DNA of 64,000 nt from Posidonia oceanica (lineage: Eukaryota; Streptophyta; Magnoliopsida; Alismatales; Posidoniaceae), in NCBI GenBank assembly GCA_037176725.1, contig JAZBRS010000020.1:83584001-83648000 (forward strand). Reading direction: 5' to 3'. Positions within the stretch are counted from its first letter, which is position 1. Each line of letters opens with the position of its first letter. Shown here piece after piece: positions 1,712 through 62,972 of this stretch. A program made the position numbers and the translations under genes. A model generated the notes under the pieces. That model worked only from the letters and a program-made list of their open reading frames with translations. It made no database searches and had not been told where the DNA came from.

Positions 1712-4700
1712 TGTAGACACCCCATTCTGACAGCTTGGAAGTTGGTTGTTTTCTCCAACAAGCTCGTGTGGACTCTGGAATGGCACTCCTTTTTTCTAAC
1801 CCAAAACCTAGCCTAAAACCCTACCCAAAACCCCAAGCCCTTTCTACACCTTTTTTAAACCTTCTAGCCCAAGCCCAAGCCCATTTGCAGCCTTTTGCCA
1901 ACTGAGTGCGTTGTACGCTGGAATAGGCAGCGTCCAATGTTGGACGCGTCCTGTGCCAGCGTCCAACGTTGGACGCCTTCTGCTCCAGCGTCCAAAGACT
2001 CGATTGCAGCAGTGGCTGCTCTGCCACCTTCGGCTCATCTCCCGTCCACTCCACCGCCTCCCCGCACTTACTACCCGTCCCGTCTCACACTCCATGCCAT
2101 CCACTACCTTCCAAAGCCTAGTTACTAGCCATCCTCTCCATATCAACACCATTCCCACTCTCTCTTCTCCTCACTACCAATCTACCGCCTCTATCAGCCA
2201 CCAACAGCTCCTTCGTCGGCCGACTGACATGCCCACACCCCCTCCTGCCACCCTCGTGGCCTCAGCACACTCAAAGCACCTGCCAAAGCCTGCCAATTCC
2301 CCTCTGAGCCGCTGCAATTCGGTAGCAAAACCCAAGCACCCATCACACAAAACAGCCCCAACCACCCTTCTTCCACAGAACGCACAGACCAGCACAGCCC
2401 TCTCCCTCTGCAATTCTCCACCTCCAGAGCAAGACCAAAGATCCACCTCCACTCTGGAACCTTTGCCGACCTCTCCCGTGCCTCCAGCAGCCCGCGCGAG
2501 CTCACCGGAGTCAGACTGTTGCCCACTTCCATAGCGCCGGTGAAGGAGGTCGACACGCCGTTCCAGGCCGCAACGAGGTAAGTTATCTATCCCCGTAGCT
2601 CATGCATGTTAGGGTGAATGTTCCCATGCATTTTCTTGATATTTCGAATCCTTTTGGCCGTGATTTGTGGCCAGAAGGAAGTTCAGTGTGTTGGATGCGC
2701 CATCTGGTGCGTCCAACGTTGGACGCGGCATAGGCCAGCGTCCAACACCCTGTTTTGCTTTGCTCTTGTTCTTTTGCTCTCCATGCTTTGCTATTGTTGG
2801 TTCATTTGTAAATCCATGCTGCATGTCTTCCTTGCATGTCCTCTGATGCTATGCCATGCCTATTTGCTTGTTCCATGCTTGCTTGAATCATCTTTGCATG
2901 CTCTAAGTTCATTCTGCCATCTGCCTGTGTTGGACGCCTGGGTGAGCCGCGTCCAACGTTGGACGCAGACTTACCTAGCGTCCAACACCTCTGTTAGCTG
3001 TAGCTTGCTGCCATGCTTACACTATGCCTATTTTTGATGCTATTTCATGATCCATGCTTGCTTAGAGATGCCTGGCCCTTATGGCAACCATGCTTAGGTT
3101 TGCTAGGTCCTTTCAAGTTGCATGCATTCCTTTTGCAAGTTTAATCCTTTATTTCCATGCTTGCTCTCTTTCTATTTGCTTCTCTTGGATTACATGCTTG
3201 CTATGCATGATTATTTTGCTCTGGCATGTCTTTAGTATGTTTGCATGCATATAGGTGGGGTTTATAGCTAAGCTCCCCCTTAGCACAGGTAGGTCTGCAT
3301 GCTGTGGTCGTTGGACGCCAGAGGCTTCAGCGTCCAACGTTGGACGCTATTGTCTCCAGCGTCTAACGTCCCAGCCCTCTTTTTGTTGTTTAAAGCTTGC
3401 ATGATGCCCTAATTTGTTTGCTTGCATCTCTCCTGTGTTTACATGCATGTTCAGCTTCCCTTGCAATTATTCCATGGCTTCTTTAGTTTATTTGCTAATT
3501 TTATGCAAGTTTCTTGTGTGTTTGTGCCTCCTAGGGCGTTGTACGCTGCTGGTGCAAGCGTCCAACATTGGACACCGGCCTAGCTCATGTCCAACGTTCT
3601 GGTTGTGCCTCTGGCCTGGCACATGCTGCAATTGGTAAGTTCTTAGTTTTTTTTTTTGTGATTCCATCCTTGCGTGTTTGCCCTATGCTTATGTCCAATA
3701 GCCCAAATGCATGATCCCTATTTTATTTGTCCTTTGTATGCTTTTTTCTTCTTTTTCTCTCTGGCCTGTGTTAGATGCCTGTCCCTCTGGCGTCTAACGT
3801 TGGACGCCACGCGCACCGACATCCAACAACCTGCTTGCTTTGATCCTTGATCCTAGCTTGCCTCCTGCTCTGATTCCTCCTCTAATCTCCTGTTAGGTTA
3901 GTCCTGCATGTCATGAACCCATTTAGTTGCATTCATGCATCTGTTTTGCATCCATATAGCTAGAATGCATTGTTTTCTAAAAACTGCATGCTGTCTGCCT
4001 CCAGTAGGTGTTGGACGCCAGCAATGGCAACGTCCAACGTTGGACGCCGCTGTTGCCAGCGTCCAACGCTTGTAGTTGGCTTGACTTAATTTTAAAATGC
4101 CAATTTTGTTTCGCTCGTCGTTTTTCGCGTTTTATGGCTTCTAACGCTTACTGCAACCCCTATGTGCTGCCTAATCCTTGTTTTGGTTTTGCACCCTGCT
4201 TTCACCTCGTTTTCTGTGCCTTGCATTGTTTTCCGTATTTCGCACCGTTTTCTGCACTTGCTTTGCTTTATCGCTTGCATGTCGTTTGCATTGCTTGGTT
4301 TTCCTTGCAGTTTTGCTTTATCACCTGCATCTGCATTTAGGGCTATGATGCTTACTGCCTAAGAGTTCTCACGAACCAGGGTCCGCCCAGTTCAAAACAC
4401 TAGCAGCGTTGCTGAGCACATAGATAGCACGTTTATTTCCCATGCATAGCAGGTAGACATTCATTGCATTTAGGCATTAGGTTAGCATTTCCCTGCATTA
4501 GCACGAGATTGCCTAAGAAAGACCGACTCTCGGACGTATCAGGGGTGCCTAACACCTTCCCCGTGCGTAACAGGAGTCCTTGCCCTTTCTCTTGGCTCGC
4601 ATCGACCTTTCCTTTATCCTAGGCATGAGTCATAGCATAGCATAGCATAGCTTAGCATTGCATCCCTTTGCTCCTTTGCATTCGGTTTTGCATGTCTTTT

Positions 4701-4910
4701 CATGTATTACCCCCGGTTTTACCTGTCTTCCAATTCAATAGACCTGGTGGCGACTCTGATTTTGTCTTATCATTTCTTTTCTTTTCTTTTGCCAGCGTTT
4801 CTGAGTCGAGTTTCTTCCCTCGGATCCCGCCGCATATAGTGAGCCTATTTTGATCGGTGCACGCGAGCTTTGGCATCGTGCATGGACGATCAGAATTCAA
4901 AATTACTACA
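1712..4910 (+). mobile_element. LTR-A, Tat/Ogre-like Ty3/gypsy 3' LTR (3,199 bp)
   Basis: Starts TGTAGACACCCCATTCTG and ends ATTACTACA. The 5' part has a run of CCTAAAACC-type words (1,798-1,850). The middle holds seven hairpin cassettes (1,910-4,067). The 3' part carries blocks shared with every other LTR of this family in the window: a box beginning gttctcacgaaccaggg (4,356-4,420), a very conserved block around gtgcctaacaccttcccc (4,517-4,590) and an internal match to the tRNA-Arg primer site, tggcgactct, near 4,748. The last 100 bases resemble LTRs D and J, not LTRs B and C. The base after the LTR is not a primer site, so it is not a standard 5' LTR. Confidence 0.75.
1910..4067. repeat. 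Hairpin cassettes of LTR-A
   Basis: Seven cassettes at 1,910-1,996 (an extended one with a second central palindrome), 2,690-2,746, 2,929-2,986, 3,310-3,367, 3,538-3,595, 3,770-3,827 and 4,010-4,067. Each has the order arm GTTGGACGC, 11-12 base loop, GCGTCCAAC directly joined to GTTGGACGC (together the 18-bp palindrome), a second loop, and GCGTCCAAC. Loop sequences differ in every copy. Successive cassettes from 2,690 lie 239, 381, 228, 232 and 240 bp apart, so they mark a decayed repeat of about 235 bp. Copies 5 and 6 have several arm substitutions. Confidence 0.9.
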
Positions 4911-6612: not shown

Positions 6613-7863
6613 CTACAGGTACTCAAAGAGTCCACACCAGCTGCTCGCTTTCTCTCCTGCAATCGGTTTCCCTACCTTGATGACTCCGACACATTGCTCT
6701 GGGACTCTCCGAGAGAGGATTGCCATGCTCACTGGGCTGACCGTGAGAAGCTGAGCCTGTGGGGCATCCCACCCAGACTTTTGAAGGCTACCGATGTTGA
6801 AGTAAGCCGACATCTTCTGTGCGCTGTTGCAAGGTTCTGGAAGCTAACGCACCATGTCTTTCGCTTCGGCTGAACAGAATTAATGCCCACGCTGGAGGAA
6901 GTACGCCAGATATGTGACTTCTCCACGCTCATGGGGCCAGCTGTGTTCACAAGGCGTACTGGCTATGTCGCTGTCTTGAAACAGCTAACAGGACTCTCCG
7001 CAGAAAGCTGCGAGAAGAGACTAGTCTACATTGACGAGCCTGTACCCACGCTTCGTCTGAACTACTTTAAGGAAGTCTCCAAAAAGTGCACCGCACTAGG
7101 TGATGAACTTTGGCTCGGCAGCTTTGTCACCAGCTTCCTAGGCGAGCTAATCTTCAGCCATGGCCGGATGATAGTCGCCATTGAGGTTGCTGAGATTGCA
7201 CTTGCTGTGGTGACCCAGCAAATCAACCTGGCACCTGTCGTCCTAGCTGAGACCTATCACGGGCTGAACCGCATTTCACACCACTGCCGCCACTTTCATG
7301 GCTGCGGAGCTCTGGTACAGGTATGGCTGGCCGGACATCTGGAAATAGACATTCTGTGCCCCCAGAGGCAAGCATTTGAGATGTATTGCAGCAGCAGCCA
7401 TGCCAAGACCATCAAGAGTGTCCGGGAAGAATATGAGAAGCTGTCGAAGCTAACAGATGATACAGTGACCTGGCGTTTCATCCCATCTGTAGCAGAGCCG
7501 TTCACTATTTTCTTCGGCACCCGCGACATGCAATTGGTTGTGCTACCGAGATTCACCAAAGGCGTGGAGTATCACCCCATCCAGGTCATGCGGTAATTCG
7601 GTTTCCAGCAGGGAGCTTTTATCGACAGCACGGCACCGAAGCTGCTCCAGCCCTATCTTCTCAACACAGTTGCTGCCACAACAGAGCTAGCCGACCTCAT
7701 GCGCCATGGAGTACGATCAATAGACATTGCAGCTGTAAAGGGGTCAAGATGTACTCCTGGGTACCTGACTAAAGTGCAGGGGCTGTGGCCCATTAACGAG
7801 ATCCCACCTGGTGCACCTTTGTTTCCTGACACCAGGAAGTCGAAGAAGGCTCGGATCAGTTAG
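6613..7863 (+). pseudogene. PMD/DUF7745-like gene remnant
   Basis: One frame runs from a plausible splice acceptor (gactacag at 6,611-6,618) to TAG at 7,861, about 416 codons, interrupted only by TGA at 6,871 and TAA at 7,594. The longest uninterrupted part is 6,883-7,596. Recognisable pieces in order are an aromatic F-W motif followed by FRFG at about 6,838-6,870, MPTLEEV (where plant transposon-type proteins have a PTLEE-like motif), LAETYHGLNRI, LVQVWLAGHL, and, across the second stop, R-stop-FG where the family usually has RQFG. This pattern matches the plant-mobile-domain/DUF7745 group carried by many plant mobile elements; its molecular role is not established. Both stops fit single C-to-T or G-to-A changes. 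The frame ends in a basic tail (RKSKKARIS). It is on the same strand as the minisatellite and LTR-B that follow, so it could be cargo of that element. Confidence 0.7.
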
Positions 7864-8480: not shown

Positions 8481-9639
8481 ACGTCTGCTTGCTTCCACTA
8501 TTTGAGGGCAAGTTCATCCCCCCTTTGCATGACCTTTCAAGGTCATTTCTGCTTGTTTCCTCGATGGTTTGAGGATGAGCCCTTTTGCATGCCCTTTCAA
8601 GGTCATGTCTGCTTGCTTCCTCGATGGTTTGAGGACGAGCCCCTTTGCATGCCCTTTCGAGGTCATGTCTGCTTGTTTCCTCTTTGTTTTGAGGATGAGC
8701 CCCTTTACATGCCCTTTCAAGGCCATGTCTACGTGCTTCCCCGATGGTTTGAGGACGAGCCCCTTTGCATGTCCTTTCGAAGTCATGTCTGCTTGTTTCC
8801 TCAGTTGGTTTGAGGACGAGCGACTTTGCACGCCCTTTCGAGGTCATGTCGCCTTGCTTCCTCGATGGTTTGAGGATTAGCCCCTTTGCATGCCCTTTCG
8901 AGGTCATGTCTGCTTGCTTCCTCGATGGTTTGAGGACGAGCCCCATTGCATGCCCTTTCGAGGTCATGTCTGCTTGTTTCCTTAGTTTGTTTAAGGACAA
9001 GCCCCTTTGCAAGCCCTTTCGAGGTCAAGTCTGCTTGTTTCCTCGATGGTTTGAGGACGAGCCACTTTGCATGCCCTTTCGAGGTCATGTCTGCTTGTTT
9101 CCTCAGTTGATTTGAGGACGAGCGCCTTCGCATGCCCTTTCGAGGTCATGTCTGCTTGTTTCTTCGATGGTTTGATAACGAGCCCCTTTGCATGCCCTTT
9201 CGAGGTCATGTCTGCTTGTTTCCTCAGTTGATTTGCGGACGAGCGCCTTTGCATGCCCTTTCGGGGTCAAGCCTGCTTGCTTCCTCGATCGTTTGAGGAC
9301 GAACCCCTTTGCATGGCCTTTCGAAGTCATGTCTGCTTGCTTCCTCGATGGTTTAAAGATGAGCCCCTTCGCATGCCCTTTCGAGGTCATTTCTGCTTGT
9401 TTCATCGTTGGTTTGAGGACGAGCCCCTTTGCATGCCCTTTCGAGGTCGTGTCTGCTTGCTTCCTCGATGGTTTGAGGATGAGCCCCTTTGCATGCCCTT
9501 TCGATGTCATGTCTGCTTGCTTCCTCGTTGGTTTGAGGTTGAGCCCCTTTGCATGCCCTTTCGAGGTCATGTATGCTTGTTTCCTCATTGGTTTGAGGAC
9601 AAACCCCTTTGCATGCCCTTTCGTGGTCATGTCTGCTTG

Positions 9640-25334: not shown

Positions 25335-25525
25335 TATAGACACCCCATTCTGACTGCCTGGAAGATGGTGGATACTCCTGCAAGCTCACTCGAACTCTGA
25401 GGTGGCTCTTTCTCTCTCAAACCCACCCTAAAACCCTCACTCTAGCCCACCAAAGCCTTAGCCCACTTAACCAAGGCCCAAAGCCCAAAGTAAAGCCCAA
25501 CTTAGGCTTTTTTCCTCTCAGGCTT

Positions 25526-27917
25526 GTTGGACGTAGGCATGGGCAGCGTCCAACGTTGGATGTGCCCTGTGCCAGCGTCCAACGAGTCGGGAGTTGCAGC
25601 GGCAACTGCAGCCTCTGGCTCACCGCCCGTCCTCTCCTCTGTCCACCTACACTTACTACCGGTCTCCTCAGCCACTTACTCACCCCCACTACGCGCCAAG
25701 ACCAATAACTCGGCCTGCCACCGTGTCATCTCCCCCACCGCTGCGTCTCTCACTCACCATGCCCTCACTGAGCCAGCTACCTATGCTCTGCCACGCCAAG
25801 ACTTTTCCGTCCACCTCCTGACATCCACTACCTTCCTTGACATCCCTCGTGGCCTCCCCACTCACCAAGACCTCTGCCATTGCCTACAAAAGCCTCTGCA
25901 ACCGCTGCAACGCCGTTGCTTTTTGACAAACGAACCCAACAAAACACAACACTTCACCTCGATCCAGAGACCACCACACCCATCTGCGTGAGAATCCAGT
26001 GCTTGTGCGATCTCAAGAAAACTCGCACAACCCCTCCCGAGCCTCCAGCCAAGTTCCCCGAGCTTCCCTCGCGTCTAGAAGGCTCGCCGGAGTCCGCCGG
26101 CCATCATCTTCCGCAGCACCGGTGAGGAGTGCAAACACACCTCTGCAGGCCACCCCAAGTGATTTTTCTTCACCTCTAGCTCGTACATGCATGTGGTAGT
26201 GTAGCTAGGTAGTTTTTACATGGTTTAGCACAGCACACACGCCCCCTCACCTTGGCTTCCCGCCGCGAGGAGGAGGTGGGTGGAGCAATCCACCCACCTA
26301 TTTCTGGCACTGAGCACATGGACATGCTCGTCGTCACTCACTCTTGCTTCCTAGCGAGTTAGTTTGAGCTTTTTGGCCGATTTAGCCACTGTCTTTGGTC
26401 GGGGAATTTCCCGACCTGTTGGACGCACATGCTAATGCGTCCAACGTTGGACGTACCCTGAGGCAGCGTCCAACACCTCTGCAAGTCTTTATTTTGTTTT
26501 GCTTATTTTTGTTCCCAAGTTGTTATGCTTTGGTTGCATCTTTGTGAGATTACTCTACATGCTTTCCCTTAATGCTTACAGATGCCATGGTATATTCGAT
26601 ATCAAGCTTTGATCCTGGTTTGGATCCATATTTCATGTTTCAGTTCAGTATGCTTTTTACCTTTGTTGGACGCTGGAACACACTACGTCCAACGTTGGAT
26701 GCTGGTGTGTCCAGCGTCCTATTTATCTGCTTGCTGCCACTTGCTGCCATGCATGAATGCCGCTTCCTTTTGAGTTACATACTTGCTCCATATATGCTTT
26801 GTGGTGTTTGGCCTCCATGGCAGATCCATATTTATCTGCTTGTTGCCACTTGCTGCCATGCATGAATGCTGCTTCCTTTTGAGTTACATACTTGCTCCAT
26901 ATATGCTTAGTGGTGTTTGGCCTACATGGCAACCATGTTTGAGTTTGCAAGTCCCTTTTCAAGTTGCATGTGGATTTGCATGGGTTTTTGTTCCCTTATT
27001 TCCTTAGGCATGCTTCTTATAATGTTCTATATGGAATGCTTGCTTGATCTACGTTGCATGCCTTGGTTTAGCCTGCTTTCTATAGCTTGCATGCATGTTT
27101 AAGTAGTCTCTAAGCTCAGTTCTTGTTTACAGCATGATGTTCCTCTTTTATGTGTTGGACGCAGGTACACTCCACGTCCTATGTTGGACGCAGATGTGCT
27201 CTGCGTCCTATGATTCTGCTCAATTGCTCTTGTTTAAATGTTTGCAAGATTCCATTATCATTTGTGTTTGCTTGATCCACGCTTGCATGTGTGTGCTTAG
27301 CCCTCTAGCCACTGTTCCCAAGTTTGCTTGGCTTTTTATCAGGGATGTATGCAAGCTCCTTCAGGTTTGTGCCTTCCTTTGAGTTGGACGCAAGTACTAC
27401 TGGCGTCCTACATAGGACGCAGGTGTGGCTTGCGTCCTACACACTGGTTGTGTTTCCTCTGTGCATGCTTTGCAGATGCTTTCCTTCTTGGATTTTTTTG
27501 TATGATCCATGTTTGCATGCTTAGCCCTAACTTATTTACAGCAATTTAAATGTATGCCATGATGTTTCCTCTATCGTTTGCATGCTATTTTGCTGTGCTG
27601 CTGTTTGCCCTGTGTTGGACGCAGAGCCCTCTTGCGTCCAATGTTGGATGCTATGCTTTCTGGCGTCCAACACCCTGCAATGTTTAAATCCAGTTCTATG
27701 CTTGCATCTTGCTCTTAAATCGTTTCTGATTTGTTGCCTTGACTGCCTTGCATGATCTACATATCTGCCATTACCCTATTGCATTTGCATCGCATTTATA
27801 CATCTAGAATGCATGGTTTTCCAGATTGCATGCTTTTCTGCTGTTTTCCATCTGTCTGTGTTGGACGCTATATTGCCCTGCGTCCATCATTGGACGCAGG
27901 TCATAGCTGCATCCGAC
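25526..27917. repeat. Hairpin cassettes of LTR-B
   Basis: Cassettes at 25,526-25,583, 26,418-26,474, 26,665-26,722, 27,154-27,211, 27,383-27,440, 27,614-27,671 and 27,860-27,917. Intervals from the second on are 247, 489, 229, 231 and 246 bp; the 489 interval contains an extra tandem duplication. Several arms have changed from CCAAC to CCTAC/CCTAT; at 27,402-27,420 both halves of the central palindrome changed together (GCGTCCTA and TAGGACGC), keeping it self-complementary. Confidence 0.9.
26728..26940 (+). repeat. 106-bp tandem duplication in LTR-B
   Basis: Two nearly identical copies beginning ctgcttg(c/t)tgccacttgc and running through gttacatacttgctccat to tttggcct(c/a)catgg. The high identity indicates a duplication much younger than the LTR family itself. 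It accounts for the double-length gap between two hairpin cassettes. Confidence 0.85.
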
Positions 27918-28840
27918 ACTTACAGTTGGCTGAACATCGTTTTAAAGTGCCGATTTCATTCCATTTGCCGTTTTCCGCATTTATCTGCCTCCGACACATG
28001 CTTTGACACCTGTGCATGCTGCCGGACCCCTGTTTTCAGTTTTACGCCTCGTATCGCCCGTTTTCCTGTGGTTTTCCACGTCAGTTTCCTTTCCCCTTTG
28101 CGTATGCTTGCATCGTGTGATTTTTACTTGGTTTATTGAATCCGTCTTCTCTCCCCTTTGCTTGTTTCGCACTCGCATCATGTGGTTTTATTTGGCTTTT
28201 CCGCTTTGTTTCCTTTCTCCTTTGCATGTCATACTTGCATTGCGTGGTTTTATCGGCATTTTGTTTTATCGCCTGCATTTGCATTAGGGCAGTGATGCTT
28301 ACTATCAGGAGTTCTCACGAACCAGGGTTCGCCCGATTCGGAACACAGGCAGCGCTGCTAAGCACATAGGCTGCACGTTGAATTTCCCATGCATGGCATT
28401 CAGGCATTTAGGCATTTAGGCATTAAAGCATGCATAGCACGGCATAGCATCTATCGCCCCCTGGGCGTACAGTTAAAGGCAATCATTGCCGAAATTCCTG
28501 CAAATGCGAGTGATTAGCCAAGAAAGACCAATTCCTCGGGCGTGTCGGGGGTGCCTAACGCCTTCCCCGCACGTAACAGGATTCCTTACCCTTTCTTTGG
28601 ACCCACAGTGACCATTTTGCCCTCGTCCTTAGCACGAGTCATCCATTCTGCATAGCATTGCATTCATTTGCATGTTTTCTATGCTTTCCTCGGTTTTCCT
28701 CATCTCCCAATTGAATAGACTAGGTGGCGACTCTGTTTTGTCTTATCTCTTTGCTTTCCTTCTTCGCGTCGCTATCCGTGAAGACCTCCTCCCTGTTCGA
28801 ACCCTCCTCCGGTCTGGTTCTGTGGGATCAGGCATTCACA

Positions 28841-29517: not shown

Positions 29518-29840
29518 GTTGGACGTTCAATATTATTGCGTCATACATTGGACGCAACCTGCTCTGGCGTCCAATGCAGCAAAAAAAAAAGAAAAAATAA
29601 ATAAATAAGAGTTGTTGGATGCAATCTGTTCTAGCGTTCTACGTTGAACGCATAGACAGTTGTATCCAATGCTTTTCAGCAACTTAAGTTGCTGAACTTC
29701 GCTCATGGCCCTCCAAATCCATGGACAAAATGCCAAACCAATTTCTACTAGTTCTAGAGGTTTCTACAAGTTGAAATACACGTGTGGGCGTTGGTTTCAT
29801 ATTTTTTGGACCTCCGAGCTATCTAGAATCATCTGTTGTA
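29518..29840 (+). repeat. Direct repeat downstream of the PMD gene (copy 1)
   Basis: Contains two hairpin cassettes (29,518-29,575 and 29,614-29,670), then gcaacttaagttgctgaa, then cctccaaatc and gaggtttctacaag. The same order occurs at 33,606-33,888 on the other side of the minus-strand PMD gene, in the same orientation. The pair could be the remains of terminal repeats of the unit that carries the gene. Confidence 0.75.
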
Positions 29841-30190: not shown

Positions 30191-33100
30191 CTAAGTAGCG
30201 CTCTCCCCCTCTCCCTCGGGAGCTGAAGGAGGAACTGAAGGAGGAGCTGCAGGGGGCTGTGCCGACTGACGCACTGAGCCACCTGAGGAAGCCTGTGACG
30301 CAGCTCGAGACCCCTCAACCGGTGAATGAAGGCTGCTAGAGCGGTGCCTCGACATGAGAAATGGAGGAGGAGGAACTCGGCGACCAGTGGAAACACTACC
30401 AAGCATGGCCTCCCGTCAGTAATGCATCGCCTCGCTCTCGAACTGAGCTGCCATCGCATGTTCCATATCTCGTTCCTGCAAGAAAAGACAGAAAAGAAGC
30501 ATCAATCCATCAGTATAAGCGAGCATATGAATTTTAAAAAAAGGCAAAAGAGCAAGTTATACCGTCTCAACTGCCTCCAATCGCCTCCTCAGCTCGGCAA
30601 TCTCTGCAACTGAATCAGTCACTAGTGGAGGTTGCTGCTGCACAGCAAGCCGGGCAATCTCAACAGCCCTCTCCTCAGCAAGCTAACGAGCAAAGCCTAG
30701 GTCACTAGCAGCAGCCTGTACCTGCCGTTCTAGCTCCTGAACTCACGCATCCCGAAAAGACAGCTCCCTCTGAAGATCATCAATCTGCAAAGGCCAGAAC
30801 CATAGTTAGAACTGAATAAAGAATATAAAAGAAAAGTACACTACTGTACTTACCATACTCTGAAGGCAGGAAATCTCCTCGGCATGGCCTGGTGGAGGGG
30901 CAGAGCTGGTCGAAGGCTGCAAAAGCAAAGAGGCATGATTAGCACAATTTTCAAGGCAAATAACTATGCTATAAAAATAAAAATAAATTCAAACCTAAGA
31001 AGCAGAGGCTCGCAGACGCTCAACCTCCTCGGTCAGCTCAGCAACGCACCTAACCAGGTCGCGCTCGCGCTGACTGTACTCATCGGTAGTCCTCAGCTGC
31101 AAGGGGCAAGGTCCAAACGAGTTAGCTGTCAAGAAATACAAGCAATACAAATTGAAACATAAAGCTGAATACTCACCGCTATCTCCATTTGTGTCCTATG
31201 AGAGCGGACGGACTCCTACAGCTCACCCACAATCCTCGCTGCCACATCAGGAGCGGTGTCACCCATGGGAAGGATCGACCGCCCCAGAAAATGGGAGCGA
31301 TGGAAAACCATGAGCCCGCTGAACTGGTTGTCCATCCACTTGGCCCAAGTCAACTCGTCCTTAGCCGACGCATCAACAGGAGTGGTGGAGCCACCTCGAA
31401 CCCAATCCAGCAACTGTGGACCATAGGTGTCAACCCAGTGGCGAGCACGTCCACCTCCTCCCCGTATCTCACGCCAAACTCAGAATGGGTGAGCTCTGGG
31501 CTGCACCTGACGACGCCCTAACTACCTAAGCTCCCGGCTGATCTACTGGAAGTGGCAGTGGTTCCAACAGTGGAGCCAGATGTCCTGGTCGAAAACAACT
31601 CGGTCCCGAGCTATCTCGGGAACATCCTCGTGCTCCCCCTCGGCGTAAGGATGCCAGATCACCTAAAAAGCAGACAGGGAATTCAATAAACCAAAAGAAA
31701 AATAATATATCAGCAGGGGCATATGAAAAGAAGATTACCTGGGCAGGAACCAGCATCTCAAAGAAGAGACGCTCTACATAGCGATGGCCGGCGATCGCCT
31801 CAGGTGCACGATCTGCCTTGCTCCAGTATAGTCCCCGTGGGAAGGGCATCCCAGCCTCAGGAACTGAAGGTGGGGTGGGCCTCATGAATGTAAAGTGGTC
31901 CCATACCCACATCTACAAGAAAAAAAGCAAATCATCAATCGAGCATGCAAAGTAAAGAATATTTGAAGCTTAAATAAGTAGGGAAAGTTTATATACCTGA
32001 AAGAATGGCAAGTTCCCGCCAAGCTGACGAGAACTACCATCAGAAAACTTGAAGAGCACGGTATACAAGAACGACAGGCTCGCGGCTCCCCAAGCATACT
32101 CCCCTACTCGGTCCAAGTCAGCAAGCAGGGGCAGGAACACTGCTGAAACCCGTGAAGTAGCGTGGCTGAAGAGCAGGTCCCTAAACAGAACTAAAAGGAA
32201 GGCGCGGAGCTACTGATCCGCGTCCTCTCCAGGCTCTATAGTAGTTTCCTGAGAGTCCTCGATGCACTGAACCGCCGAGGTAGTAACAAAAAGGCGTGGC
32301 CTGTACATGACGACCCTCCTCCCTACTAACTCTGCCATCATAGAGGTATAGTCTAAATGTACTGAGCCGGTCACTGGACGTCCGGTCACCCCAAGTCCGG
32401 TCAGCTGAACCGTGTCCTCCAAAGAAATGACGAACTCACCGACCCGGGTCACGAATGAGCTCGTATGGTGGTGGTAGCGCTCTGCTACAGACTCCAGAAG
32501 CCCCAACTCAAGTTGGAAAAGAGGAATGGACAGGAAGTGTCCAAACCCCAACTGCCGAAGCCGCTCGTGCTGGAAAGGCGCCAACATCCAGTAGCACCTG
32601 AGGACCTGACCCTAGTGGCAACGCACGACGGTGGGAGCACGACTCTGCAAGAGAGAGGAAAATTGTCAGATCAAGTCAAATATGATAATAAATTGAATTC
32701 GAACGGGAAATATGATTACCTGTCCCCTGGCCGCCAACGCGGCTACTGCAAGCTCGGCTCGGGCCGCATCCCTACGCGGACTCGAGGCCTGCACCTCGTC
32801 ACGGGGTATGTGAGCCCGCGTGAAGTCTGGAGGAGTGCCAGCCTCGCCCTCCACCTCCCGGTGAATGAACTCTAGGATCCTCTGGTACCAAGAGTCGTCC
32901 TCAACTACCGGTGCGGCCGCCTCCTCTGCAAGACCGGAGTCCTCGCTGTCTGACCCTGTGCTCTCGAAGTCCTTGCCGAGAGTGGCTGAAGAATCAGAAC
33001 CCTTCGAGCCACCAGAGACACTCATCACCTCAGTCTCCTCAACGCTCGTTGCCTCAGCCTCCACGACGCAGGCCGCCACCTCAAGCACGTCCATTGGTGC

Positions 33101-33271
33101 CGCCACCTTGGGCACGTCTACCGGTGCCGCCACCTCAGCCTCGTCTATCGCCGGTGTCACTGCCTCCGGCACACTCACCGAAGTCGGCTCAGACCCGCCA
33201 GACGTCGACGGGCCCTCCCCCTTCCGGGCCAACTTCTTCGGCCTCATGTACGCCTTGCCAAATCTCGGCAT
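30191..33271 (-). pseudogene. Plant mobile domain (PMD) gene, eight coding exons, ten premature stops
   Basis: Exons read from the minus strand: 33,271-32,720, 32,644-31,997, 31,912-31,739, 31,662-31,177, 31,096-30,995, 30,916-30,854, 30,784-30,563 and 30,475-30,191. Every boundary has GT/AG, all introns are phase 0, and the exons sum to 844 codons in one frame. Order in the product: basic N-terminus (MPRFGKAYMRPKK), acidic Ser/Val-rich linker, PMD core (LGFGHFLSIP, VGEFVISLEDTVQLTGLGV, YAWGAASLSFLY, RGLYWSK, VIWHPYA), coiled coil over the fifth to seventh listed exons, and a Pro/Ser-rich tail. PMD proteins occur in plant mobile elements and in a few host genes acting in gene silencing and cell division; the role here is unknown. 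Ten in-frame TAG/TGA codons interrupt it, yet there is no frameshift. A 5' non-coding exon probably ends at 33,359. Exon limits come from consensus sites only. Confidence 0.8.
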
Positions 33272-33358: not shown

Positions 33359-33600
33359 CCTGCAAGTCGTCGCCGAAGCACCTGCAAATCATCGCTGGAG
33401 CACCTGCAAATCCTCGCCGCACACGCCGGAGTCGCCGAATGCATGCCCTAACTGCCGAATGCGTGCAAACGTCACCCACCGCCTCACACCGGAGGAGTTT
33501 GAAGGTGGAGGAGAGTCTGTTGTCGTCGGAGAAGGAGGAGAAAGAAGTTAAGAGCGGGAAAGTGAGGAGCCAAGGAAACAGGCGGTCTTTAAAGGGCCCA
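33359..33600 (-). promoter_or_regulatory. Probable 5' non-coding exon and promoter side of the PMD gene
   Basis: On the minus strand a pyrimidine-rich leader (about 33,520-33,570) leads to three 23-bp units with gatttgcaggtgct and a donor GCAG/GTACGC at 33,359; the acceptor TTTCAG lies at 33,275, just before the TTC-ATG of the first coding exon. A weak TATA-like tttaaag is at about 33,588. The start of transcription is inferred, not seen. Confidence 0.4.
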
Positions 33601-33605: not shown

Positions 33606-33888
33606 GTTGGACGCTAAAGGCATTTGCGTCATACGTTGGACGCAGCTAAGTATGGCGTCCTATGCCCAGAGCACAGTTTAGATGTTGGACGCAATCAATT
33701 CTAGCGTCATATGTTTGACGCAGGCAGTTACAGCGTCCAATACTTCAAAGCAACTTAAAATGCTGAATGTCGCCAAGAAGCCTCCAAATCAATTTTCTTC
33801 CAATACCAGGAGAGGCTTCTACAAGCTAGAATGCGCATGGGGATGATGTCATCATAAGTTTTGAACCCCCGGGCAACTCAGAATCCCA
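33606..33888 (+). repeat. Direct repeat upstream of the PMD gene (copy 2)
   Basis: Homologous to 29,518-29,840: two hairpin cassettes (33,606-33,663 and 33,684-33,741), gcaacttaaaatgctgaa, cctccaaatc and gaggcttctacaag. This copy places cassettes immediately on the promoter side of the PMD gene. Confidence 0.75.
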
Positions 33889-34754: not shown

Positions 34755-35050
34755 CCTTAACAAAGCAAAGCCCAGAGCACAACCGGATAAACAAAGCAAA
34801 GCCCAAAGCACAACCGAATAAACAAAGCAAAGCCCAGAGCACAACCAGATAAACAAAGCAAAGCCTGGAGCACAACCAGATAAACAAAGCAAAACCCCAG
34901 AGCACAACCGGATAAACAAAGCAAAGCCCGAAGCACAACCGGATAAACAAAGCAAAGTCCGGAGCACAACCGGATAAACAAAGCAAAGCCCAGAGCACAA
35001 TCGGATAAACAAAGCAAAACCCCGGAGCACAACCGGGTCAACAAAGCAAA
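34755..35050 (+). repeat. Tandem repeat, 31-bp aaacaaagcaaagcc units
   Basis: Nine or so copies of aaacaaagcaaagcccagag followed by cacaaccggat, with a few single-base length variants. The long minus-strand frames rich in Leu/Cys/Gly here are a by-product of the repeat. Confidence 0.9.
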
Positions 35051-35053
35051 GCC

Positions 35054-36065: not shown

Positions 36066-38633
36066 TGTAGATACCCCTTTTGGCACTCCCCTTGCATTTT
36101 TAGGTTCCATTATCTCATATCATGTTCCACTCATTTTTATAATCTTTTTTCTCAGCTGAAGTACTCTCTAAAAGTCCATTTGCCTCTCTGGAACGTTGGA
36201 CGCAGCATTTAACTGCGTCTAACGTTGGACACAGCATACAGCTACGTCCAACAGTTCCAGTTCATTTTATTTCCAAATCTGCCAATTTTCCTTTTGGACC
36301 CAAACCATCTGTGAAAGTCAAACAGGTCCACGTCAACAAAATCACCTCATTAAATTGATTGACACTTGTCCCCTTGATTGAGAAGCCAAAATTGGCAAGT
36401 TTGCAATTTGAGTGTGTTGGACGCTGGATGTCCTAGCGTCCAACGTTGGACGCTGTTAATCATAGCGTCCAATAACTTAGTTTTGTGTTTCCCCAAACTT
36501 GCCTTATTTGGCTAAAGTCAAAGTCCATGTTTTGCCTCCACTAGAGGTCCTTTGACCAGTCAAGGCTTTAATTGGCCTTACTAGTCATTAATCAGCCTTT
36601 TATTGAGGAATATTCTTTGATCTTGGCATCTTTGTCTCAGAGGGTCGTTGGACACTCCTTGTTCCAGCATCCAACAATGGACGCTGTAACGGTCAGCGTC
36701 CAACACCTCTGAAATAGGAAAGTTTGCTGACTTGGCCTTTGTGTCCTTATTTGTTCCTCCCCTGCTTCTATGAAAGCAAGGGTACCCCCACTAGGTCAAA
36801 GGACAGAAAATTGGAGTAAGGCCGGTGGGTTTTGAGTGTCACAAATTTGAACTAGAATCTTGAGAGGAATTATATTGATAGAGTTTCGAGAAAGTTTGAG
36901 TCTTCTTCCATCTCCAACCACGTCAACGGCGTCTTGTGTTCTACGCATACCACCCATATCAAAAGGGGGTTTTCTTTTTAATAGTTTGCATATCACATTT
37001 CATTTCATATATTGTTGTAGCTAGGCATATTCATTCATAATTGCAACCGGAGGAATAAAACCCCTCGGGTAAGTGTTCCTCTTTGCTTATTTTATGTCAT
37101 TTTCATTTACCTTAGATCAGTTACTACACAATATCTAATCTGCATATTTAAATCTATTTTGCAAGGAAAAGAAGAAGAAGAAGAAACTCACTAAGCACGG
37201 GCACCCTTGGGCAACGCAGGCGTTGTCCTAGGGTAGCTGAACCTGCAACCATATCACATCTCCCAAGGTGTCTTGAGGGCCAGCGAAAGCAAACCGAGAG
37301 TGGCGATCACACCAATTCTATCACCTGTGGAGTGACGGAGTTGGATACAAAAAGGGGACCCCGAGAAAGAGCAAATAGAACCAAAACAAACTCTTCTCCC
37401 TCAAAATCCCATATCCACATTCTCTGTTTTGATGTTTGATCTATTGCTGATGCTTGATTGTCTTGATCCTGTGATTCCCAACTTCCTATTTTGATTGCAT
37501 AGCATGATTTGTGTATCCTCAGTTACTGCATTGCATTTAGATCATTGTTTATCATAGCATGCATGCATTTTTCTTCAAAACCAGACTTCAGGTGTTGGAC
37601 GCCTAGATCCCAGTGTCCAACGTTGGACGCTGGTGATCACAGCGTCCAACACCCTCCGCCAGTTTAAAATCGTTTTGATGCTTGCATTTGATTTCCGAGC
37701 TTTGTGCTTTGATCTTTCAGCATGGTTTATCTGCCCATAGCTTTCTCATTGCATTAAAATACATGATTTCCAAGTTTGCATGGCTTATCTGCAGATTCTT
37801 TATTTTTCTATGTTGGACGCTATCTGTTCCAGCGTCCAACACATTACAGTTTACAGTCCACTATTTTTAAGCACTGATCTTGTTTTCGTTGTCGCTTTCC
37901 GTATTTTGTTGCCTCCGATACATGCCTTGACACCCAAGCATGCTGTCGGACCCCTGTTTCCTGTTTTACGCCTTGCATCGCCTGCTTTCCCGTGGTCTTT
38001 CACCTCGGACTTGTTTTCCATCGCATGTCACTATTTGCATTGCATGGTTTTCTTCGGCGTTTTGATTTCTCGCCTACATTGCATTTAGGGCAGTGATGCT
38101 TACTGTCTGGAGTTCTTACGAACCAAGGCTCGCTCGGTTCGGAACACTGGCAGCGTTGCTGAGCACATAGACTACACGTTTAATTCCCATACACGACACT
38201 TAGGCATTTTGAGCAAGTAAAGCATTCATAGCATGGCATAGCATCTATCGCCCTCGAGCGTACAGTTAAAGGCAAGCACTTGCCGAAATTCCTGCAAATG
38301 CGAGCGAGATTAGCCTTGAAAGACCGATTCCTCAGGCATGTCGGGGGTGCCTAACACCTTCCCCGCGCGTAACAGGAGTCCTTACCCTTTCTCTGGCCCG
38401 CAGTGACCATTTTGCCCTCGTGCTTGGCACGAGTCAATCATTTTGCATAGCATTGCATTCATTTGCATGTTTTCTTGCATTTCCCCTAGTTTTCCTCGTT
38501 TCCCGATTGAATAGACTAGGTGGCAACTCCGTTTTGCTTTATCTTTTGTTTTCCTTCTTCGCGTCGCTTCCGTGAAGACCTTCTCTCTGTCCGGGCCCTC
38601 GCCGGTCCAGATCTCTGGGGACAGGCATTCACA
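36066..38633 (+). mobile_element. LTR-C, Tat/Ogre-like LTR flanked by both PPT and PBS (2,568 bp)
   Basis: Starts TGTAGATACCCC and ends AGGCATTCACA. It has a polypurine tract on its left and a tRNA-Arg primer-binding site two bases to its right, so it belongs at once to an element on the left (as 3' LTR) and one on the right (as 5' LTR). Shared family blocks are the acgaacc box (38,117), the conserved gtgcctaac block (38,313-38,390) and the internal tggcaactcc (38,521). Its cassettes are listed separately. Confidence 0.85.
36195..37840. repeat. Hairpin cassettes of LTR-C
   Basis: Full cassettes at 36,195-36,252, 36,416-36,473, 36,647-36,704 and 37,594-37,650, and a half cassette (one hairpin) at 37,812-37,840. 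Neighbouring copies are 221, 231 and 218 bp apart. The roughly 900 bp between the third and fourth holds none. Confidence 0.9.
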
Positions 38634-56754: not shown

Positions 56755-59164
56755 TGTAAACACCCCATTTTACATGTACTCGTCGGTGGATACCTCCAGA
56801 GGAACAAGCCTGGTTGCGACGGACCAAACCCCCATTTCAAACCCAACAAACCATCCCAAAATCCACCCCACACTTTAAAACCTACCTAAACCCAACACAC
56901 ACCAAGGCCCAGGCCTAGTGATAGCCCAATGCTCTTTGGAAATGCTCAAGATCCGATCATAGGCCTCTGACATTGTCTTAGCGTCTCTAGACGACGTCAA
57001 CTCTGGACGTCTCCAGATGACAGCATTAGCCAGCGGCTACCAAAGTCGTAGATAAGCAGCGCGCTCATCAGGCGCGCAATGCTGGCGCGACGCCCTATGT
57101 CAGATAAATATCAGTAAGGTTACTCTTGCCATTCCACCCGTTGGCGCATTGAAACCTGGCTTCCCATTGGTTCCGACGGATCTAAGCCTGGACCTTATGG
57201 CATCAAGACCATCCTACCCCCTCATCTCAATCCTAATTCCCATCTCATCCACCCCACTTGAATCTAAACCATGCATTCAAACACGTCGTTAACCAACGAC
57301 ATCCATGCAACTTCCTGGGCTATAAAATAGTGCCCCGCTCCTCACATTGGTTGGTTGCTTGCTTGCTCTCGGGTTGCTTGCCCTTGCTCCCCTACACCAT
57401 CTCGAGCCTTCCTTGCATCCTTGCAACCACCAAGCACCCCGCAACACCTCCTCACTCTCCAGGCACCCATCGCCGGCAAGCCACCACCAATCCAAGCTCG
57501 TCTCCTACACCATCCAGACATTTCCCTGAGCGAGGGAGAGACCCCCGAGCATCGCACCTCACAACCAACACCTCGCCGTCTGTCCAGCCGCGACCGATGT
57601 CGACACGTCCAGGGAACCATCGCGAGTCACCGCACCGAGAAAGCGCGCATCGATTCTCCAGCAGGTGAGCACACTCCTCCCTTAGCGCAATGTAGCCTAT
57701 CTATGCGTTGTGGACGCCGTTTCTTACTGTTTTGCATCGTCATTTCCATCATTTTTTATCGCCGACATCCGACGCATTCTGGGATTCCTCCATGGCTTTG
57801 AGCTCGACTAGAGGCCGATGAGCTTGAACTGGATGAAGCCCTACACTCATGCATAGCCCCTCGGACCCGTGGTGGTGTCCCGTCAGCTTTTTCGGCCGTG
57901 TCAATGGCCGACCACCTCCTCCATGGTGGGCGGATCCGGCAAGCCCGAGCGGTGAAGGGAGGGGCACGTTCTCTGTGTTTTTCTCTTCCACATTGCATCC
58001 TGTGGTCCCTCCTGCCTTCCTCCATCTCCGACATAAGCCGCGAATGCGTTTGGTTGGGTTCCGGCCTCGATAATGGCCGACGAACCCAACTTCTTCCTGC
58101 GTCGTGCAAGGGAGATGGGTAGGCCGATTCGTGCATGGTTTTTCTTGCTTCTTTGCTTCGAATGATGCTCTGTTATTCCCTTTTGCTTCGCCGATCGTTA
58201 GTTGTTTTGTTTCGATCTGGTATGCCGAGCAATTGTGCGATGAAGTCCATTGTTTGGACTGTAATTCCTGGAGCATGCCTTATGAGCAACTTGATCTAGC
58301 GCAACAATCTAACGTGACTTTTGAGCGCATGGATCTGGCACTAAGAGCCAGCAAGACTTGCAAGCACGCAACCTAGATCCAGAATAGATAGTGTGCAGAG
58401 CTGTGTTTTCTGGTTTTCTTATCAATTCTTCTTTCGTTGCTTCGATGTCTTTTCTCGATTTGATTACAACTGCATCGCATGATTTCCCGGTCGATTGTTT
58501 TACGATTGCATGCATATGGCAATGATGATTACTATCTGGTGTTAAATTGAACTATTGGCACGATGATTTGGCAGGCATCCCTCATGGATGATCCCAGCGC
58601 ACTATACTGGCACGAGTGCCTATTCATTTTCAGAACACTGGTAGCGTTGCTGAGCATTAGATTCATATTTTAAATGCATGTTTTCAATTTTGATTCATTC
58701 TGATCTATTTCCTACATGATTTACAGCCTCATGGCATGGCATTTTGTATCTTGCTTGTCGAGCATATATTATTTGGCATGATTTGCCTACATTTGCCACA
58801 CAAGAGCGGATTGGCCTAGAAAGACCGACTTCCTCAGGCATGTGGGGGTGCCTAACACCTTCCCCATGCGTAACAGAAGTCCTTACCCTTTCTTTGGACC
58901 GCAATGACTTCGTGTCGCATTTATTCGGGACGGATTGTATGTTTTTCTTTCGAAATTATATTGCACGTTTCCTTACTTTCTCATTTCCAGTTTTCCTCGT
59001 CTTTCCGGCTTTCAATAGACTAGGTGGCGACTCCCTTTTTTTTATCACTGTTTTCTTCGCCGTTTTTTCCGGTGTTTTCGAGTCGAGTGTCCTTCCTCGG
59101 ATTCACCCATTCATCTGTGACCCTCATGTCGGTCAATGCGCGCCGCGTGTCTGGGATGGTCACA
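56755..59164 (+). mobile_element. Solo LTR-H, Tat/Ogre-like (2,410 bp), target duplication TATAC
   Basis: Starts TGTAAACACCCC, ends GATGGTCACA, and is flanked by TATAC at 56,750-56,754 and 59,165-59,169. It contains CCTAAACCC words (about 56,880), a TATA box, the conserved gtgcctaacaccttcccc block (58,818-58,892) and the tggcgactcc site (59,026). It has no GTTGGACGC cassettes; a small cluster of gacgtc words (56,990-57,025) and a gcgcgc hairpin (57,060-57,078) lie near its start. Confidence 0.9.
57321..57329 (+). promoter_or_regulatory. TATA box of LTR-H
   Basis: TATAAAATA in the context gggctataaaatagtgcccc, about 570 bp into the LTR, followed by a pyrimidine-rich leader. This is the clearest core promoter in the window. 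Confidence 0.7.
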
Positions 59165-59360
59165 TATACAAGGCGAGCGAATTATATGATTTGCCTTAGC
59201 TCCGAGCCTACCTTTCTCTTACCTCCTTGTGCAAGGTATATGTGTAGACAGGACAAAGTATGGGTTACCTGAGCATTCATCTTCCTATAGGCTTTGGGAA
59301 TGACACCCCCTTCTAGCTTAGGGTTAGGCCCTAGGTCCCCTCTTTGTGTAGGCATGCTGA

Positions 59361-60800: not shown

Positions 60801-61399
60801 TTGTAACGACCCAGATTTGGAGCACAGTGCGAGTGGAAGTTCGGGGCTGCTCTTCCCTTCTTTTTACACGTCTCCTTCTTCTTACCCTTCTTCTCCTTCT
60901 TTCTTCTTCTCTTTTATGGATTTTTTTTTAAAGAGAAAAGAAGAGAAGAAGAGGGGAGAAGAATCGAGAAGGAAAGAAAGAGAGAAAGGAGAGAGAGGGA
61001 AGAGAGGAGGGAACCGAGAGAGAGAGAGAGGGAGGCTCGCCGATGAAGGGAGAAGCTCGCTGCCGTCGCCACCACCGTTGTCGCCACCAAGAGGAGGGGA
61101 GGAGGAGATCCAAAGGAGCTGTGTAGTGGAGGAGGAGGCTTGCATCGCCGGTGAATGGTACACATTTCGTTAGATTCTTCTCTTCCTTCTGTAGACACCC
61201 CAATCCGACACCTAGTCAGCGGATTTCTTGGGAAGCTTGCTCGGATTGTGGCACGGCAGACCCCCACCCTCCAATCTAGACCTAAACCCCACCTAAACTC
61301 CACCTAAACTCCACCTAAGCCTACCCAAACCTTACCGAAGCCTTAGCCTAAGTCCACCCAAAAAAGCACAGTAAAAACATCCAAAATCCACTTCAAGTC

Positions 61400-62972
61400 G
61401 TTGGACGCTAGATATGCCTGCGTCTTATGTAAGACGCAGGAAAATCAGTATTTAACACTACCTGCATCCTTGGGGCGTGCAGGAAAATCAGCGTCTAACA
61501 CTACCTGCATCCTTGGGGCGTTAGACGCTACCTGAGGCTACGTCCAACGTTGGACGCAGCTCAAGTACGCGTCCTACACACCAGGGACTACAGACAGTTG
61601 CCCTGAGCTCCCCTGACACCCCCACGACTTCGCCCATGCCTCTGGCAACCACCAATGACCTTGCTCCCATGCCGTCCTACCCTGCCACGACCTACCACCA
61701 TGCCCTGTAACCCACGACCTTTGCAACCTTGACCAAGCAAAAACCAGTGGAAGGGAACCCATTCCACACAGACCACTGATTGCCAGAGATTCCCAGAGCG
61801 AAACCAGAGCGATTCCAAGCCCTCCAAAGCGATCCTCAGCCTCCTCCCACACGTGAGAGACCCCCCGGAGCATTCCCCAGCAACCAGGCTACCGTCCAAG
61901 CCCTCTGTTCGTCCGTCGTCCGAGCTCGCCGTCGTAACTCCGGTCAACTCCGAGACACACCCCCAGCGCACACCACAGGTAATTTCCTCCTTCTCTTGCA
62001 TCCCTCACTCCTCCCTCATCTTCATCGAGCTCCACAATCGAGCTTCATGGCTCTCCGACCACTCAGGTGGCCGGAAAAGCCATGAACGCTGGCGGCAAGA
62101 GGGGGAGGTGGGTGGAGTAATCCACTGGCCCATTTAGCTTAATTTTTACATGTTCAAGATCGTTGATGCATGCTCTTGCCTATTTCATAGCTAAATCTCA
62201 GTTTCCAATCGATTTGAATGCTCTTACATGATCTGAGGTGCCCCGAGGTGTTGAATGCAGGAACTGGTGTGTCCAACGTAGGACGCTGCCAATCCCAACG
62301 TTCAACACCTCTGTCCCTTTTTTTTTAGCATATTTTCTGTCTCAGAGTATTTTAATTATTTTCTGGTCATATTACATGCAGCATGCATCAGCATACACAC
62401 ATTTTCATGCCATGTTTTGAATCTAGTGTTTTATTTCCTTTATTTCCATTTTAATCAAGTGTTTTATCAGTTTAAATCTTGTTCAGTTTGTTGGACGCTG
62501 TGAATCACTACGTCCAACGTTAGACGCAATGTTCATAGCGTCTAACACTCCTACTTGGCTAAACCCATTTCTGATGATTTGTCTCCTTGATCCTGTGTGC
62601 ACTGGCTTCTGTTTTGATCATTTAGCATGATCTGCATGTCCCCAGTTGCCATATTGCATTTGCATCATGTTTGTAGAATACCTGGCATGCATTCTTTAAA
62701 AAATCTGGCTTCAGGTGTTAGACGCTGAGGATCCCAACGTCCAACGTCAAACGCTAGTGATCCTAGCGTCCAACACCTCAAGCATTTAAAATCCCTGTTT
62801 TGATGCCTGCATGTTGCCTCTAATCTTTGTTTGCCTTAGTATCAGTTTTCTGGCATGATTACCCATCCATGGTTTTCGTACATCATCAAAATCATTAAAT
62901 TTCAAAGCATGCATTAACTTTCTACAGAATCTGATTTTAGTCTGTTAGACGTTGGTGATCTCAGCGTCCAAC
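61400..62972. repeat. Hairpin cassettes of LTR-J
   Basis: A partial cassette at 61,400-61,437, with central palindrome GCGTCTTATGTAAGACGC in which both halves have changed together. Full cassettes at 61,520-61,577, 62,250-62,306, 62,490-62,546 and 62,717-62,774, and a half cassette at 62,944-62,972. The last four are 240, 227 and 227 bp apart. Confidence 0.88.
61438..61519 (+). repeat. 43-bp tandem duplication in LTR-J
   Basis: Two nearly identical copies of aggaaaatcagyrtytaaca followed by ctacctgcatccttggggcg, lying between a partial and a full cassette; probably a recent replication-slippage duplication. Confidence 0.85.

What the first reader, a model, noticed from the sequence alone, without database searches (positions are those of the whole stretch)
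1910..62972. About 29 tandem-hairpin cassettes built on GCGTCCAACGTTGGACGC
The sequence shows about 29 copies of a roughly 58-bp unit with four 9-base arms in the order A, A', A, A' (A = GTTGGACGC, A' = GCGTCCAAC). Arms stay almost constant across LTRs A, B, C, J and the repeats at 29.5 and 33.6 kb, whereas the loops are all different. Any transcript through an LTR could fold into paired hairpins, or the DNA could present an 18-bp palindrome to a dimeric protein. I know of no named element with this design in plant LTRs; function is inference.
Basis: partly seen in the sequence, partly recalled or inferred. Interest (0 to 1): 0.85.

Follow-up and report, generated by a model that had tools for sequence, protein, structure and literature searches.

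The report
Four-half-site palindrome cassettes in plant retrotransposons
A family of plant jumping genes carries tens of thousands of copies of a rigidly spaced palindromic DNA cassette in its control regions and in front of an extra gene, most likely docking sites for a protein that switches the elements on or off.

Summary
The window holds 56 hairpin units (GTTGGACGC - 11 or 10 bases - GCGTCCAAC) in 29 groups. Its own genome (2.96 Gb, unnamed) holds 47,725 exact 18-bp palindromes and 96,849 exact units with a 5-17 base loop; reversed controls give 0. For exact arms the geometry is nearly fixed: 96,467 of 96,849 loops are 11 or 10 bases, and units abut 47,725 times against 96 with a gap of 1-17. 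Arms are kept where loops are not: 86% against 43% between two diverged LTRs. Arm partners do not covary significantly, which disfavours RNA pairing. In 26 of 30 copies examined a double cassette (one partly deleted) aligns upstream of an antisense plant-mobile-domain gene, followed by TTTAA in 25. Best reading: a multi-half-site DNA array for a sequence-specific protein, a gypsy-type counterpart of Sirevirus LTR palindromes. The binder is unknown; the element's own protein is the boldest candidate. Unexplained: loops diverge faster than fourfold-degenerate sites in the same copies.

The parts
1712..4910 (+). LTR A; cassettes at 1910-1996 (three hairpins), 2690-2746, 2929-2986, 3310-3367, 3538-3595, 3770-3827, 4010-4067
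   Evidence: hairpin scan; LTR limits read by eye (TGTAGACACC...CTACA) and self-comparison
25335..28840 (+). LTR B; cassettes at 25526-25583, 26418-26474, 26665-26722, 27154-27211, 27383-27440, 27614-27671, 27860-27917, at positions orthologous to those of LTR A
   Evidence: 14 of 14 hairpins aligned in register; limits by eye
29518..29670 (.). double cassette, diverged copy of the 33.6 kb antisense-promoter region
   Evidence: local alignment score 190 against null maximum 39, and 95 against 33 outside the cassettes
33606..33741 (-). double cassette (four hairpins) upstream of the antisense gene
33587..33594 (-). TATA-like CTTTAAAG, 11 bp downstream of the cassette in gene orientation
   Evidence: read from sequence; the matching place reads TTTAA in 25 of 26 aligned copies, GTTAA in the other
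31526..33271 (-). antisense plant-mobile-domain (PMD) gene in pieces: first ATG of the leading piece at 33271 (start inferred), PMD matches in 32210-32611 and 31970-32209, below cut-off in 31526-31912
   Evidence: Pfam PF10536 E 3.1e-11, 4.1e-12 and 0.36
36066..38633 (+). LTR C; cassettes at 36195-36252, 36416-36473, 36647-36704, 37594-37650, single hairpin 37812-37840; primer-binding-site-like TGGCGACTCCGCTGGGGA from 38637
   Evidence: limits by eye; 20 relatives of 36150-36750 aligned
61190..63835 (+). LTR J; cassettes at 61520-61577, 62250-62306, 62490-62546, 62717-62774, single hairpins 61400-61428 and 62944-62972
   Evidence: limits by eye
56755..59170 (+). LTR without cassettes (internal negative control), TATA-like ctataaaata at 57320
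   Evidence: 0 exact 8-bp hairpins; 3' part similar to LTR C and J; limits by eye

Best explanation
The cassette is a DNA cis-element: four copies of an about 11-bp half-site (YWGCGTCCAAC and its reverse complement) held in fixed register, bound by a dimeric or tetrameric sequence-specific protein. Several cassettes per LTR, often about 230 bp apart, and a double cassette next to the likely core promoter of the antisense PMD gene would let one factor control both the element's transcription and its accessory gene. Shown: copy number, rigid spacing of exact arms, arm conservation with free loops, and position next to a TATA-like box upstream of the antisense gene. Inferred: that a protein binds, that it is multimeric, that the TATA-like box is a promoter, and that the effect is on transcription or silencing. 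Host factor or element-encoded factor is not decided.
For: Rigid geometry of exact arms genome-wide: A-to-A' spacing of 11 in 82,515 and 10 in 13,952 of 96,849 with spacing 5-17; A'-to-A spacing 0 in 47,725 against 96 at 1-17. Arms 216/252 against loops 66/153 and aligned spacers 968/1700 between LTR A and B. In 26 antisense promoters arms 0.858 against loops 0.588; with all 30 rows no shifted layout in the same alignment reached the arms-minus-loops difference (0 of 529). Loop ends continue the half-site (loop base 2 a purine in 118/134, base 10 a pyrimidine in 123/134 distinct 11-base loops) with no significant pairing of the two ends. In the antisense promoter the fourth left arm reads TAT at positions 2-4 in 26 of 26 copies; in 19 of 26 the opposite arm leaves two or three bases unpaired (counted by eye). 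Double cassette next to TTTAA upstream of the PMD gene.
Against: No binding, expression or methylation data were available. In 7 of the 26 promoter copies the opposite arm carries A or G at the place facing that T, which restores a pair there (5 A, 2 G; by eye): compatible with some pairing. Hairpin 1 shows a non-significant excess of same double changes (19 against 14.4, p 0.11). In close copies arms are not better kept than spacers. By eye most LTR cassettes may lie downstream of the transcription start, where an RNA role is possible. The 230-bp pitch and the fast loops are not predicted by simple protein binding.
Confidence: 0.65

Rival explanations
1. RNA structure: transcripts through the LTR fold into hairpins that act as RNA signals, or as Dicer substrates that seed small RNAs, as proposed for Sirevirus palindromes.
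For: 58-nt cassettes have a mean RNA folding energy of -31.3 kcal/mol (26 groups of two or more units), and 16 of 26 110-nt windows are below -40, the cut-off used for miRNA-like windows in maize (PMC10760457, passages). Sirevirus palindromes are small-RNA hotspots (PMC10760457 and PMC5311732, passages). 7 of 26 promoter copies regain a pair at one variant place.
Against: No significant covariation of hairpin partners (p 0.11 and 0.41) or palindrome partners (p 0.17), while direct-repeat arms do share changes (p <0.001 and 0.006). Loop length fixed at 10-11 and inner gap at 0, neither needed by a stem. Non-pairing bases kept in 19 of 26 promoter copies.
Confidence: 0.16
2. Structural relic: the 29-bp unit spread by tandem duplication and template switching and has no present function.
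For: Direct-repeat arms share changes; groups of 1, 2 and 3 units occur (28, 83 and 9); arms no better kept than spacers in close copies.
Against: Arms stay alike across LTRs whose aligned spacers are 57% and loops 43% identical. Spacing is fixed in 99.6% and 99.8% of exact places. Recurrence at a fixed place in the antisense promoter.
Confidence: 0.09
3. Chromatin or architectural site: the regular pitch of about 230 bp positions nucleosomes or recruits a host silencing or insulating complex, so the cassette serves the host more than the element.
For: 38 of 51 cassette distances below 600 bp lie in 200-259 bp; the arms contain CpG.
Against: Distances come partly from homologous LTRs; the antisense-promoter pair is only 78 bp apart; nothing measured on chromatin.
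Confidence: 0.08

Closest known systems
Palindromic repeated motifs (RM boxes) of Sirevirus LTRs (Ty1/copia)
   Same: Short palindromes, many copies per LTR, conserved amid divergent flanks, also present upstream of an extra gene (env) (PMC2829016, abstract and passages); one of them, Usier GTCGGACGTCCGAC, shares GGACG with the arms here. Maize motif CACCGGACNNNGTCCGGTG (PMC10760457, passages); palindrome region called variable and a small-RNA hotspot (PMC5311732, passages).
   Different: All listed boxes but Tnd-1 share a CGG-CCG core that is absent here; those seen are single palindromes of 10-19 bp, not a four-half-site layout with fixed 10-11 and 0 spacers. The elements here look gypsy-like (not proven), and the extra gene is antisense PMD.
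VANC target motifs of VANDAL transposons
   Same: A transposon-encoded protein binds a 9-bp motif repeated in the element's non-coding DNA and causes loss of methylation (PMC5735166, passages).
   Different: DNA transposon; the word palindrome does not occur in the main text; binding proven there, not here. A DUF1985 match of a PMD piece was weak (E 0.11) and did not appear among 44 members of the other PMD gene's alignment.
Heat-responsive element of the ONSEN LTR
   Same: Short half-sites in an LTR bound by a host factor, HSFA2 (PMC3907296, passages).
   Different: Different motif and element class (copia), heat-specific.
Antisense ORFs of Retand elements
   Same: Antisense accessory gene between pol and the 3' LTR, with tandem arrays (PMC11963269, passages and Discussion); PMD was the most frequent atypical domain in a survey of plant gypsy elements (PMC9289625, passages).
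   Different: TRP28 in Retand, PMD here; Retand LTRs are 315-1,194 bp, those here 2.5-3.5 kb. The passages read mention no palindromic promoter cassette.

Membership tests
Sirevirus repeated motif | palindromic motif in high copy in the LTR | tested here: met
Sirevirus repeated motif | CGG-CCG core (all listed but Tnd-1) | tested here: not met
   GCGTCCAACGTTGGACGC has no CGG...CCG (definition PMC2829016)
Sirevirus repeated motif | host element is Ty1/copia Sirevirus | tested here: inconclusive
   no pol found or searched; the PMD gene points to gypsy, because in one survey the atypical domains incl. PMD were all in gypsy elements (PMC9289625)
Tat/Ogre gypsy retrotransposon | primer binding site complementary to tRNA-Arg | tested here: inconclusive
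   TGGCGACTCCGCTGGGGA follows LTR C; tRNA-Arg is reported for Ogre (PMC9289625); complementarity was not computed
Tat/Ogre gypsy retrotransposon | reverse transcriptase and dual RNase H of the Tat clade | not tested
   no pol fetched; the 3.5 kb piece of one copy (L194) has one gag-like ORF (my judgement, no Pfam match) and the antisense gene's 3' end
Retand | antisense gene upstream of the 3' LTR | tested here: met
   PMD on the minus strand before LTR C; PMD exon 2.9-3.4 kb from an LTR C match in opposite orientation also on C35, C22 and C13
Retand | TRP28 domain in the antisense ORF | tested here: not met
   the five antisense pieces scanned give PMD (three), a sub-threshold DUF1985, or nothing; no TRP28
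VANC-like anti-silencing system | element-encoded protein binds the repeated motif | not testable with these tools
   no binding data
VANC-like anti-silencing system | DUF1985/DUF287 protein | tested here: not met
   PMD instead; DUF1985 only E 0.11 in one piece, 0 of 44 in A1

The most novel reading that the evidence does not exclude
The cassette is the operator of a self-encoded regulatory circuit: the PMD protein of the element (or its partner complex) binds the four-half-site array in the LTRs and in its own promoter and protects the element from silencing or activates it. The loops, free of binding constraint, diversify faster than neutral because host small RNAs against the LTR must be escaped. 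That would be a retrotransposon counterpart of the VANC system and a first DNA target for element-borne PMD proteins.
Probability: 0.2. Interest if true: 0.92.

Novelty: new variant of a known kind. Interest (0 to 1): 0.74.

Why it matters
A noncoding cassette with spacing fixed in over 99% of tens of thousands of exact genomic copies is a clear sign of a binding code in plant retrotransposons, in a superfamily where maize elements showed no obvious peak of predicted structure (PMC10760457). It gives a defined bait to identify the regulator of a very abundant element family. It links LTR control to the PMD accessory gene, whose piece shows purifying selection (median dN/dS 0.20 in selected copies). 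The faster-than-neutral loops offer a measurable trace of a possible arms race with host silencing.

Tried and rejected
RNA covariation: looked for and not significant. Loop inversion inside hairpins: in the four antisense-promoter loop sets no pair matched the reverse complement at 9 or more of 11, though in one set 10 pairs fit the reverse complement better than the forward strand by more than 3. Loop exchange between cassettes: 16 near-identical loops in non-homologous places against 12.6 expected. Deamination as the cause of fast loops: Ti:Tv is lower in loops (34:39) than in spacers (125:82). Dyad symmetry of loops: not significant after composition except one position of the 10-base loops (p 0.042). 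The AlphaFold model of the sense PMD ORF was poor (mean pLDDT 60.9, pTM 0.36), so no fold search was made. DUF1985 link: not confirmed (the genome search for it did not complete). Literature: the arm words in the paper library gave 103 papers, of which the 20 listed have no transposon in the title; the other 83 were not seen. Other searches of the library for LTR palindromes. Bousios 2016 is not held; what is said of it comes from passages. A resemblance to palindromes in peanut and soybean LTRs was recalled and not tested. Not obtained: a genome count of the 18-mer with mismatches.
Full report
WHAT IS THERE. A scan for GTTGGACGC (A), a loop, then GCGTCCAAC (A') finds 56 units in the window in 29 groups from 1910 to 62972; ten shuffles gave 0-2 units. 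The loop is 11 bases in 50 of 56 and 10 in 6. Twenty-five groups are two units abutting, so the junction is the 18-bp palindrome GCGTCCAACGTTGGACGC or a variant; one group has three units and three have one. The 18-mer with up to 3 mismatches occurs 25 times, 100 dinucleotide shuffles gave none.

WHERE IT IS. Four LTRs on the + strand hold 25 groups: A (about 1712-4910, 7 groups), B (25335-28840, 7), C (36066-38633, 5) and J (61190-63835, 6) (limits by eye). LTR A and B share all seven places: 14 of 14 hairpins align in register. The other four groups are two double cassettes at 29518-29670 and 33606-33741; the two regions are homologous beyond the cassettes (score 95 against null maximum 33). 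An LTR with a similar 3' part at 56755-59170 has no exact 8-bp hairpin.

GENOME SCALE. The exact 18-mer occurs 47,725 times there, the reversed control 0 times. The exact two-arm unit with a 5-17 base loop occurs 96,849 times, control 0. Of these, 82,515 have loop 11 and 13,952 loop 10, leaving 382 for the other eleven lengths. The arms in the order A', gap of 1-17, A occur 96 times, control 1, against 47,725 with gap 0. These counts are of exact arms only. In the sampled loci (arms with up to one change) the A-to-A' gap is 11 (100 times) or 10 (46), plus 38-40 for the outer pair and four single others; the A'-to-A gap is 0 (61 times), with 29 (6 times) and others at most twice among the 11 commonest. 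A 9-base loop occurs in three loci (L125, L131, L132).

CONSERVATION. Between LTR A and B arms agree in 216 of 252 letters, loops in 66 of 153, aligned spacers in 968 of 1700; non-orthologous loops agree in 28%. In the antisense-promoter region of 30 genomic copies, 26 carry the double cassette in alignment, one of them (L165) with part of the first cassette missing; four rows (L148, L154, L158, L159) do not align there and were dropped for (L158 has three upstream hairpins in another layout). In the 26, arms have 0.858 pairwise identity, loops 0.588, the 20-base gap 0.681, flanks 0.854 and 0.757; outside CpG, arms 0.894, flanks 0.816, loops 0.588. With all 30 rows arms are 0.769 and loops 0.534, and no shifted layout reached the difference (0 of 529). 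In 21 rows of LTR C and relatives (window plus 20 of 40 scored places), outside CpG arms are 0.923, spacers 0.914 and loops 0.779. Arms are not better kept than spacers there (p 0.31); this is against ongoing constraint in individual copies and fits constraint on the propagating lineage only. CpGs in arms decay about like others (197/284 kept against 478/758).

PAIRING OR HALF-SITES. In 99 distinct cassettes (150 found, near-copies dropped), same-state double changes are not significantly enriched in hairpin partners (19 against 14.4, p 0.11; 13 against 11.8, p 0.41), palindrome partners (22 against 18.4, p 0.17) or outer partners (13 against 10.6, p 0.24). They are enriched in direct repeats (25 against 10.8, p <0.001; 26 against 17.2, p 0.006). 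The null ignores phylogeny. Direct-repeat sharing fits duplication of the 29-bp unit. Loop ends are biased (base 2 purine in 118 of 134 distinct 11-base loops, base 10 pyrimidine in 123), which extends each half-site to about YWGCGTCCAAC, but the two ends of a loop do not pair beyond composition. In the antisense promoter the left arm of the fourth unit has TAT at positions 2-4 in 26 of 26 copies. In 19 of 26 the opposite arm leaves two or three bases unpaired; in 7 (5 with A, 2 with G facing the T) one pair is restored, which speaks the other way (counted by eye). On balance I read independent half-sites in fixed register, the mark of a multimeric DNA-binding protein. RNA folding stays physically possible (mean -31.3 kcal/mol per 58 nt; 16 of 26 windows of 110 nt below -40).

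THE ANTISENSE GENE. Upstream of LTR C a gene on the minus strand carries a plant mobile domain (PF10536, E 3.1e-11 and 4.1e-12 in two pieces). Its PMD piece has 15,053 first-look candidates in the genome; 150 were scored and all 150 match. Of the 30 best fetched, 27 have at least two hairpins on the upstream side and 26 align with the window's double cassette (the window's own copy, L144, is one of them). In these 26 the cassette is followed within about 20 bases by TTTAA (25) or GTTAA (1), as a core promoter might be; the window has CTTTAAAG 11 bp away. In 23 copies (of 30; copies with stops and two with other lengths left out) the PMD piece has median dN/dS 0.20 and dS 0.317 (253 pairs). The copies were picked by protein score and lack of stops, which biases this downward. 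On C35, C22 and C13 a PMD exon lies 2.9-3.4 kb from an LTR C match in opposite orientation, as in the window. One internal 3.5-kb piece (L194) shows a gag-like ORF (my judgement; no Pfam gag match) and the antisense 3' end, with no other ORF of 120 aa, so that copy looks defective or non-autonomous.

UNEXPLAINED. In 24 copies antisense-promoter loops have 0.585 pairwise identity against 0.791 at 66 fourfold sites of the PMD piece (Mann-Whitney p 2.7e-6). In LTR C the excess is mostly in variants shared by two or more copies (0.64 against 0.19 per site in spacers; singletons 0.50 against 0.31), has a low Ti:Tv (34:39 against 125:82); loop inversion (antisense promoter) and loop exchange are not evident. 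Diversifying selection, for instance escape from small RNAs, is a guess; hypermutation of single-stranded loops is another. Also, 38 of 51 cassette distances below 600 bp lie in 200-259 bp, although most LTR A spacers are hardly alike (one of 15 pairs at z 7.7, the rest at most 2.7).

WHAT IT IS. Most likely an operator-like DNA array of a sequence-specific protein, in LTRs and in an accessory-gene promoter. The closest published kind is the palindromic repeated motif of Sirevirus LTRs, also found upstream of their env gene (PMC2829016, abstract and passages); by its core motif this is not a member. It works like, and is not shown to be, a VANC-type system (PMC5735166, passages), for which RdDM targets the noncoding regions (PMC10398659, abstract). 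PMD proteins MAIN and MAIL1 act in TE silencing and gene expression, with a promoter motif in genes that need them (PMC7156037, passages), and PMD genes are sources of phased small RNAs in tea (PMC10673657, passages). This makes an element-borne PMD a candidate regulator in a conflict with host silencing. Host identity, the binding factor and the element lineage remain open.

Noticed in passing
8520-24529: A 16-kb tandem array of a 60-bp unit (266 copies); the unit is 20 codons and stays open over stretches of 180-261 aa in frames of both strands.
   Followed up: no
6613-7863 (+): A second PMD gene (PF10536 E 2.5e-9 in 6874-7596), on the + strand between LTR A and LTR B, with 64 database relatives on short contigs.
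   Followed up: partly
L174-L193 and window 36195-36704; L144-L173: Loops between the conserved arms are more variable than the surrounding spacers and, in the antisense promoter, than fourfold-degenerate sites.
   Followed up: partly
34157-34608, 34759-35053, 39540-39868: Tandem arrays of 28, 31 and 91 bp in the internal or flanking parts of the elements.
   Followed up: no
43850-44620: Degenerate TTTAGGG-like (telomere-type) repeats in an interstitial place.
   Followed up: no
26720-26931: A 109-bp tandem duplication, 96% matches, inside LTR B between two cassettes; it accounts for the longer distance there compared with LTR A.
   Followed up: yes
L006-L085: The two-arm pattern, mostly with a 10-base loop, is found in many Bacteroidales contigs (Alistipes, Paludibacteraceae) among the 80 listed, without the 18-bp junction; probably an unrelated bacterial hairpin.
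   Followed up: no
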